DNA from: Massilia rhizosphaerae
Lineage (GTDB): Bacteria; Pseudomonadota; Gammaproteobacteria; Burkholderiales; Burkholderiaceae_D
DNA: 64,000 nt
NCBI RefSeq assembly: GCF_016093545.1
Contig: NZ_JADKYX010000003.1
Location: 124,001-188,000 of the forward strand
Reading direction: 5' to 3'
The notes beneath the pieces are model-generated. The model ran no database searches, was not told the DNA's origin, and saw only the letters and a program-made list of their open reading frames with translations. Made by a program: the position numbers and the translations under genes. Of the stretch, positions 62,402 through 64,000 are shown piece after piece. The stretch's first letter is position 1. Every line of letters begins with the position of its first letter.

Positions 62402-62465
62402 GGGTTGAACCTCTCGTTATCTGATGTTTCGATTATGTTACGAACAATACTATCTGGCAGCGCGT

Positions 62466-63689
62466 AAAACCCCTTCCTTCAGGGCGGGGATATAAGCGCG
62501 GGGAGGCAACGCGTCCCTTGCTTTTCTTGCCACCGCTGATAAACTGTTCATCCATACAGTATCCGGTTGCGCAAGACGATGGGCAAGTCAACGGAACGGA
62601 AGGCGGTGCGCGTGCTTCGGCTAAGGCTGAAGGACAAGCACGCGCGCATTCTGTGCGAAAAAGCCTACTGGGTCAATCAAGTCTGGAACTATTCAAACGA
62701 GCTTTCGTACAAGGTCTGGGAGCGCGAGAGAAAATTCCTGTCCGGGTATGACTTCGCCAAGTACACGAAGGGCGCCAGCAAAGCCGGCATTCCGCTCCAC
62801 TCCCAGACCATCCGGGCAATCTCCGAAGAATACGCCATCCGGCGCAAGCAGGCTGGCAAGGTAAAGCTGCGGTGGAGGAAGTCTACCGGCGCACGGCGAT
62901 TGCTCGGCTGGATCCCGTTCAAGGCCTCGGCGCTCAGTACCGTAATGGCCGGCTATGGATGTCGGGCATCGATACGCCGCTTGGACTCTGGGACAGCCAT
63001 GGACTCGGCGGCTACGAGCTTGGGGCTGGCAACCTTGCCGAGGATTCCCGCGGCCGCTGGTACATCAATATCTGCGCCACGCCCAAGGTCAAGCCGATGC
63101 AGCAACTGCAACTGTTCAATGACACGGTTGGCGTCGACCTGGGTCTGAAGGATTTCGCTGCCACCAGCGATGGCGCCGTGATCGAGACGCAGCAGGTGTA
63201 TCGCGCGCTGGAAGAGAAGCTTGGCATTGCCCAGCGTGCAAACAAGAAAGCCCGGGTGAAGGCGATCCATGCGAAGATCGCCAATCGCCGCAAGGATTTT
63301 CACCACAAACTCAGCCGCAAGCTGGTTCACAGCTACGCGGCGATTTTCATTGGCAATGTGAACGCATCAGCCCTCGCTAAGACACGGATGGCAAAATCCG
63401 TGCTGGACGCCGGCTGGTCGCAGTTCCGAACCCAGGTGCGGTACAAGAGCGATGACGCTGGCAACTGGTTCGATGAGGTCAATGAAGCGTTTTCAACCGT
63501 GACCTGTTCTGCATGCGGTGCACGCAGCGGCCCTGGCGGGCTGAAAGAGTTGCGAATAAGGGAATGGACCTGTCCGGATTGCGGCGCGAAACACCATCGC
63601 GATGTCAACTCCGGCAAGAACATCGCCGCGGCGGGACGTCGTCGCCTGGAAGCAGGAATCCTCGTCCTTTGGGGCGGGGAGGACGTCAA
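62466..63689 (+). mobile_element. TnpB-only IS605-group (IS1341-like) element, decayed
   Basis: The left end has CCCCTTCCTTCAGGGCGGGG (62470-62489), a subterminal hairpin usual for this group. The right end has CCTCGTCC...GGGGAGGACGTCAA (63659-63689), also a hairpin. A single tnpB frame fills the middle and no tnpA is present. Ends are placed by resemblance to related elements from memory, so a few bases of error are possible. The 3' part should encode the omega RNA if intact. Confidence 0.75.
62579..63672 (+). pseudogene. tnpB: Frameshifted tnpB (RNA-guided nuclease family)
   Basis: TnpB of the IS605 OrfB type in two frames. Frame one (from ATG 62579) gives the N-terminal helical part to GWIPFKASAL. 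Frame two continues as QYRNGRLWMSGIDTPLGLWD. A single missing base near 62936 explains the break. The second part has RuvC-I VGVDLGLKD, a zinc finger CSACG...CPDCG, and RuvC-III RDVNSGKN. At RuvC-II, where Glu is expected, the sequence is FIGNVNASAL. The frame then runs past the likely old stop: CTT-TGG at 63667-63672 stands where related elements have CTT-TAG. The open frame now ends at 63753, outside the element. Confidence 0.85.
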
Positions 63690-64000
63690 CCTAATGCATA
63701 GTCTAGCGCGACGCCAGCAAACACGGCCGCACCCAACCAGTTGTTATGGTTGAAGGCGGCAAAGCATTTCATGCGGTCGCGGCCGCGGATCAGCGTGTAG
63801 TGCCAGGCCGCCATCCCGGCCGCCACCGCGATGCCGGCCACGAACCACCCGCGTAGGCCCAGCATCCAGCCGCAGGCGAGGTCGATGCCGAGCGCCGCCG
63901 CGTAGCACACCATGATGGCGAATACGTCGTAGCGGCCGAACGTGATGGCCGACGTGCGGATGCCGATCCTGAGGTCGTCGTCGCGGTCGACCATCGCGTA
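63686..64000 (-). CDS. ubiA: 4-hydroxybenzoate polyprenyltransferase, C-terminal part
   Basis: The last 104 or so residues of UbiA, an inner-membrane prenyltransferase for ubiquinone; the N-terminal part lies beyond the right edge. The second Asp-rich motif [14 protein letters not shown] is clear, followed by SAITFGRYD and three membrane helices. It ends VALDYALG. The final stop TGA and part of the Gly codon lie in the terminal sequence of the TnpB element, so the present C-terminus is probably shaped by that insertion. It runs in the same direction as the DUF883 unit downstream. Confidence 0.9.

What the first reader, a model, noticed from the sequence alone, without database searches (positions are those of the whole stretch)
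63340..63520. TnpB family with an unusual RuvC-II site
The block that normally carries the catalytic Glu reads FIGNVNASAL, with Asn in its place. A Glu does occur shortly before the zinc finger (EVNEAFSTVTCSACG). TnpB groups with moved or lost catalytic Glu are known, and nuclease-dead relatives act as RNA-guided repressors. Whether this subfamily is active is an open question.
Basis: partly seen in the sequence, partly recalled or inferred. Interest (0 to 1): 0.55.

Follow-up and report, generated by a model that had tools for sequence, protein, structure and literature searches.

The report
TnpB with relocated catalytic glutamate
This is a broken copy of a common bacterial jumping gene whose RNA-guided DNA-cutting enzyme keeps its third catalytic acid at a second, already described position, so its intact relatives are most likely active nucleases and the finding is mostly ordinary.

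Summary
Of 67 aligned rows covering the site, 67 have that Gly, and the same 67 have Asp189, Glu305 and Asp344. This is the arrangement published as "Ealt" for DxG prokaryotic TnpBs and Fanzors (PMC10711439), so the site is moved rather than lost. A model of an intact relative (pLDDT 88.4) places Glu305 right after the strand next to the usual one. The family is more compact than the search pattern printed in that paper (109-114 residues between DxG and Glu; the pattern fits 1 of 68 rows), so membership in the published clade is untested.

The window copy is broken (frame shift near 62,935, lost stop). It lies in a 1,236-bp TnpB-only IS200/IS605-type insertion absent from the site in 11 of 11 congener loci read. 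Its right-end RNA keeps the family stems.

Cleavage was not tested. Side result: Rfam HgcC matches many TnpB right-end RNAs.

The parts
62454..63689 (+). TnpB-only IS200/IS605-type element, 1236 bp (ends ambiguous by one base), no target duplication
   Evidence: 11 of 11 congener loci read (L044-L054) have an uninterrupted site, in most AATATTAT|CCTAATGCATAG, with small differences in L044, L052, L053 and L054
62450..62453 (+). Tetranucleotide just left of the element (CTAT here; TTAT in 9 and TTAA in 2 of the 11 empty sites); inferred target / TAM
   Evidence: Empty sites; L008 and L026 have TTTTAT before a similar left end; TAM role is inference
62470..62489 (+). Left-end hairpin CCCCTTCCTTCAGGGCGGGG
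   Evidence: Sequence; similar left ends in L008 and L026
62579..62934 (+). tnpB, N-terminal part, first frame
   Evidence: Translation; 76% identical to L004
62935..63753 (+). tnpB, C-terminal part (RuvC, zinc finger), other frame; reads past the family stop
   Evidence: ORF 62872-63753; one base fewer than L004 near 62,935; guided_TnpB NF040570 176.7 bits
63136..63138 (+). RuvC-I Asp (DLG motif)
   Evidence: D189 of L004, 67 of 67 rows
63352..63354 (+). Gly at the canonical RuvC-II Glu position
   Evidence: Opposite the Glu of ISDra2 TnpB; G261 of L004, 67 of 67 rows
63355..63357 (+).
   Evidence: N262 of L004: Asn 51, Asp 16 of 67 rows
63484..63486 (+). Relocated RuvC-II Glu (Ealt), six residues before the first zinc-finger Cys
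   Evidence: E305 of L004, 67 of 67 rows
63505..63582 (+). Zinc finger CxxC...CxxC
   Evidence: Sequence; Pfam PF07282 72.9 bits
63601..63603 (+). RuvC-III Asp
   Evidence: D344 of L004, 67 of 67 rows
63670..63672 (+). TGG where many relatives have the TAG stop, in the right-end hairpin loop
   Evidence: Right-end comparison
63628..63689 (+). 3' part of the predicted omega RNA scaffold / right end: two main stem-loops, ends in GTCAA
   Evidence: 36 right ends aligned, stems covary, window keeps all 18 consensus pairs
63690..63709 (+). Predicted guide (flanking DNA); equals the right half of the empty site
   Evidence: Position after GTCAA; empty sites; length assumed

Best explanation
The window holds a broken copy of a TnpB-only IS200/IS605-type element. 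Its intact relatives most likely are working RNA-guided DNA nucleases in which the RuvC-II glutamate has moved one strand along the RNase H fold: from the end of the strand that normally carries it (now Gly) to just after the next strand, six residues before the zinc finger. There it would complete the metal site with the RuvC-I and RuvC-III aspartates. As in other TnpB elements, RNA from the right end would carry the flanking DNA as guide and aim the nuclease at the empty site, so that the element is kept. Shown here: the swap and its invariance, the predicted fold, the insertion boundaries, the RNA stems. Inferred: metal binding, cleavage, the TAM and the retention role.
For: D189, G261, E305 and D344 in 67 of 67 covering rows. 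A wider set of 131 scored rows, near-copies included, split into 105 with D-G-E-D and 24 with D-E-x-D; the last 2 (L068, L032) proved to be misaligned canonical proteins with LEDL/IEDL. In a tree of 77 rows with both trait columns removed, the 51 Ealt rows used (of 105) lie on one side of a branch, SH-aLRT 99. Model of L004: pLDDT 88.4, pTM 0.66; D189 in strand 185-190, G261 in strand 257-262, E305 directly after strand 299-304, D344 in helix 343-360. Structural matches ISDra2 TnpB Z 25.2 (rmsd 2.9, 306 aligned) and mimivirus Fanzor2 Z 24.7 (rmsd 3.6, 339 aligned), tied. Fanzor2 L79 reads NVNEYLTTKTCSNCG opposite EVNEAYTTQTCSCCG (E 6.8: motif level only). Published: Fanzors and a clade of DxG TnpBs have Ealt; in SpuFz1, E541, D383, N385 and D606 coordinate two Mg ions. 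dN/dS 0.06-0.27 in 10 of 10 pairs tried.
Against: No cleavage data for this subgroup. The window copy cannot make one intact protein. The tree is a quick one with several long branches. Most viral rows were fetched with a pattern set that includes the Glu. The spacing from DxG to the Glu (109-114 residues) is shorter than the 120-160 of the published search pattern. In the peptide search the better-scoring chain, Cas12f1 9i8y (E 4.8), has Pro, not Glu, at that place.
Confidence: 0.87

Rival explanations
1. The family is nuclease-dead and acts as an RNA-guided repressor, like TldR.
For: The usual RuvC-II Glu is absent in 67 of 67 rows.
Against: The two Asp and the relocated Glu are invariant in the same rows, and the four zinc-finger Cys too; transposon-type right ends; a Y1 transposase beside tnpB in two loci. 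Loss of acids, as I recall for TldRs, is not seen.
Confidence: 0.04
2. The substitution in the window is decay of a pseudogene.
For: The window gene has a frame shift and a lost stop.
Against: The same Gly and new Glu are in the relatives; the window frame gives dN/dS 0.18 against L004.
Confidence: 0.01
3. The two frames are joined by programmed frameshifting, so the window gene still works.
For: Both parts are otherwise open and conserved.
Against: L004, L007 and L008 are in one frame here; the family stop is lost as well.
Confidence: 0.03
4. The relocated Glu does not reach the metal site; these TnpBs work with two acids and cut weakly, nick, or not at all.
For: Distances not measured; no assay of this subgroup seen; the subgroup is more compact than the published pattern.
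Against: E305 is invariant and follows the neighbouring strand; the Glu at the same place counts as the RuvC2 catalytic Glu in Fanzors.
Confidence: 0.05

Closest known systems
D(hydrophobic)G / Ealt prokaryotic TnpBs (NAR 2023, PMC10711439)
   Same: DLG at RuvC-I; Glu six residues before the first CxxC; the Glu-plus-zinc-finger part of the printed pattern fits the window protein
   Different: 109-114 residues between DxG and Glu against 120-160 printed; the full pattern fits 1 and its zinc-finger part 17 of 68 rows. Whether the paper's tree holds this subgroup, and which Glu its tested IS607 protein ISXfa1 has, I could not establish
Fanzor2 / pro-Fanzor (for example mimivirus L79, 9b0l)
   Same: Glu at the same place before the zinc finger, same fold
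   Different: Fanzors have DPG at RuvC-I; this family has DLG in 67 of 67 rows
ISDra2 TnpB (8exa, 8h1j)
   Same: Whole fold (Z 25), RuvC-I and RuvC-III Asp, zinc finger
   Different: Canonical Glu; no Glu at the Ealt place (VSPYFPSSQLC)
TldR nuclease-dead TnpB-like repressors
   Same: TnpB kinship and guide RNA (recalled; only a search listing with abstract of PMC13418256 was seen)
   Different: TldRs lack catalytic acids (recalled); here all three are kept

Membership tests
TnpB (NCBIfam guided_TnpB, NF040570) | Model match over the curated cut-off | tested here: met
   L004 219.6 bits, window C-terminal part 176.7 bits, cut-off 100; window N-terminal part no match
Ealt TnpB arrangement | Glu six residues before the first CxxC and none at the canonical site | tested here: met
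   67 of 67 covering rows
Ealt TnpB arrangement | D-hydrophobic-G at RuvC-I | tested here: met
   DLG in 67 of 67 rows
Ealt TnpB arrangement | Full search pattern of PMC10711439 (120-160 residues between DxG and Glu; zinc-finger spacing 12-18); a search device, not the definition | tested here: not met
   1 of 68 rows fits; spacing 109-114; window row does not fit
Ealt TnpB clade of PMC10711439 | Place in the published tree | not tested
   Its sequences were not at hand
Ealt TnpB arrangement | RNA-guided DNA cleavage | not testable with these tools
   Needs an assay
Fanzor / pro-Fanzor | DPG at RuvC-I | tested here: not met
   DLG in 67 of 67 rows
TldR | Loss of RuvC catalytic acids (definition recalled) | tested here: not met
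   D189, E305, D344 in 67 of 67 rows
IS200/IS605 element | Insertion 3' of a short target without duplication, hairpins at the ends | tested here: met
   Empty sites in 11 of 11 congener loci read; hairpins
IS200/IS605 element | Own Y1 transposase gene | tested here: not met
   None among the ORFs of the window element; TnpB-only. Related loci L113 and L094 have one beside tnpB; the host genome has four Y1 matches elsewhere

The most novel reading that the evidence does not exclude
The right-end guide RNAs of this family and of canonical TnpBs are relatives of an RNA that Rfam holds under another name, HgcC (RF00062). Right ends of this kind also occur where no TnpB domain was found, so guide RNAs may outlive their nuclease and could be served in trans.
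Probability: 0.55. Interest if true: 0.4.

Novelty: new member of a known kind. Interest (0 to 1): 0.25.

Why it matters
People who mine TnpBs for editors or for dead repressors should look for the relocated Glu first, and should know that the published search pattern passes over nearly all rows of this compact family (1 of 68 fits).

Tried and rejected
Dead-repressor reading: set aside on the invariant acids. Two of 131 scored rows first seemed to lack both Glu positions (L068, L032); reading them showed LEDL/IEDL and a local misalignment. 13 of 144 alignment rows were dropped there as too incomplete. The first fold, with 10 sequences, was poor (pLDDT 66.6) and was replaced by one with 68. 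A left-end pattern found only three left ends, one of them the window's own. 5 of 41 right ends (L004, L007, L101, L133, L153) were dropped before the RNA alignment by a sequence filter; two that stayed, L100 and L143, fit the first stem badly. 6 of 80 viral loci had internal stops and 9 more were duplicates, so 65 went into A3. The genome-contig scan gave one relative. Y1 transposases were sought beside family members by a short motif only (3 hits, one beside a canonical TnpB), so their number is a lower bound. The ISXfa1 protein was not obtained. The PNAS 2023 TnpB classification paper, which I recall as also treating moved active-site residues, is not held.

Full report
What is there. The window end holds a tnpB gene in two frames: 62579-62934 and about 62935-63753. 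DNA alignment with the intact relative L004 (Noviherbaspirillum galbum, 71% identical protein) shows one base fewer near 62,935. Many relatives end at a TAG inside the right-end hairpin; the window reads TGG there. In the 7.0-Mb host genome it is the only match above 40% identity; the other two TnpBs (L001, L002) are canonical.

The observation. FIGNVNASAL is as described, but the Gly, not the Asn, is opposite the canonical Glu. In A2, 22 of 22 rows have Gly-Asn and the later Glu. In A3, 67 of 67 rows covering the sites have D189, G261, E305, D344 and the four zinc-finger Cys; the residue after the Gly is Asn in 51 and Asp in 16. The one row without letters there is the window's N-terminal piece. 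Because one of two fetching patterns for most viral rows contains this Glu, I also scored a wider set: of 144 alignment rows 131 were complete enough, 105 had D-G-E-D, 24 had D-E-x-D and 2 were misaligned canonical proteins. That set holds near-copies and loci fetched twice. With both trait columns left out, a tree of 77 rows (72 different; 51 of the 105 Ealt rows, thinned) put the Ealt rows on one side of a branch, SH-aLRT 99, by the quick method and with some long branches.

What the moved Glu does. A model of L004 built on 68 sequences has mean pLDDT 88.4. D189 is in the first RuvC strand, G261 in the strand that normally carries the Glu, E305 directly after the next strand, D344 at the start of the last RuvC helix. 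In an RNase H fold these strand ends lie side by side (recalled), so E305 can plausibly fill the same site; distances were not measured. The model matches ISDra2 TnpB (Z 25.2, rmsd 2.9, 306 aligned) and mimivirus Fanzor2 (Z 24.7, rmsd 3.6, 339 aligned) over nearly its whole length. In a 21-residue query Fanzor2 reads NVNEYLTTKTCSNCG opposite EVNEAYTTQTCSCCG (E 6.8), while the better-scoring Cas12f1 9i8y (E 4.8) has Pro at that place.

What is known. Sections 23 and 28 and passages of PMC10711439 name the two arrangements Ecan and Ealt, define Ealt as the Glu six residues before the zinc finger, and report that Ealt proteins split into a D(hydrophobic)G and a DPG clade, the latter with Fanzors. 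Passages of PMC10432273 report E541, D383, N385 and D606 holding two Mg ions in SpuFz1. Passages of PMC11423790 report that one Fanzor works with Asn as its third triad residue, so triads vary. The family here has the Ealt Glu and DLG, but 109-114 residues between DxG and Glu where the printed pattern of PMC10711439 asks for 120-160 (printed as x(120160)); that pattern fits 1 of 68 rows. The arrangement is therefore known; membership in the published clade is likely but untested. Passages of PMC11870625 describe TnpB cutting plasmids that lack the element.

The element. The right flank matched in 61 of 61 genomes searched, the host included. Of the 60 congeners, 11 loci were fetched, and 11 of 11 have the site uninterrupted; the window insert runs from 62454 to 63689 without duplication. 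The four bases left of the site are TTAT in 9 and TTAA in 2. L044 has other extra sequence further left. The predicted guide, CCTAATGCATAG onwards, is the right half of the empty site, as a retention model expects. 41 distinct right ends were found beside 110 Ealt protein matches (repeats included); 36 were aligned and share stems with pair changes on both sides; the window keeps all 18 consensus pairs. L113 and L094 have a Y1 transposase beside tnpB; the window element has none.

Selection. Ten pairs, two of them with the window frame, give NG86 dN/dS of 0.06-0.27; dS is near or above 1 in several, so values are rough. The window value, 0.18 against L004, suggests that most of that divergence came before the break.

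Side result. Rfam HgcC (RF00062) matched the right end in 7 of 8 family loci at 23-28 bits (gathering 50; L026 had none). In the host genome the model gave 6 matches at E up to 10; the first, second and fourth lie at the 3' ends of its three tnpB genes. In 20 genomes chosen because they hold TnpB relatives, 30 of 74 matches at E up to 1 begin within 150 bases of a TnpB domain end on the same strand, against 0.01 expected at random; 30 of 58 domain places have one; by E-value band the shares are 9 of 15, 9 of 17, 5 of 11 and 7 of 31. Six stretches holding 8 of the other matches were read: 7 of the 8 coincide with a right-end-like hairpin that ends in TCAA, the minus-strand match at G396 C4:44712 does not by that pattern. 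No TnpB domain was found on those contigs, but the G144 C7 match begins at the contig edge and some may be remnants. Against: matches stay below gathering; of 6 control genomes that ring at E up to 1, three (Caulobacter, Thermus, Corynebacterium) have no TnpB domain match. A search for papers holding both HgcC and TnpB found none in the open-licence library. Two Rfam families (RF02656, RF02657) are stated to be omega RNAs in PMC12558985 (passages); RF02656 weakly matched L093.

Verdict. Largely ordinary: a broken member of a family with a known active-site arrangement, predicted active in intact relatives, in a compact form that the published pattern misses.

Noticed in passing
window 63584-63702; G000 C34:84780-84862, C57:258397-258523; 20 further genomes: Rfam HgcC (RF00062) matches right-end RNAs of canonical and Ealt TnpBs alike, below its gathering score but far from randomly placed (30 of 74 matches at TnpB domain ends). 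Three of 6 control genomes that ring have no TnpB domain match.
   Followed up: partly
L176, L177, L178, L179, L180, L181: Right-end-like hairpins ending in TCAA on contigs where no TnpB domain was found: possible solo right ends or remnants.
   Followed up: partly
L093:2397-2564: Weak match to Rfam sot0042 (RF02656), an archaeal tnpB-overlapping RNA.
   Followed up: no
G000 C57:259666-259845, in L002: A partial Y1 transposase match (profile positions 63-121) lies next to one of the host's canonical tnpB genes.
   Followed up: no
L113: A second Ealt TnpB frame lies downstream of the first in the same viral locus (row L113_p2861).
   Followed up: no
A3 rows: The family has only 109-114 residues between DxG and the moved Glu, shorter than the published search pattern.
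   Followed up: partly
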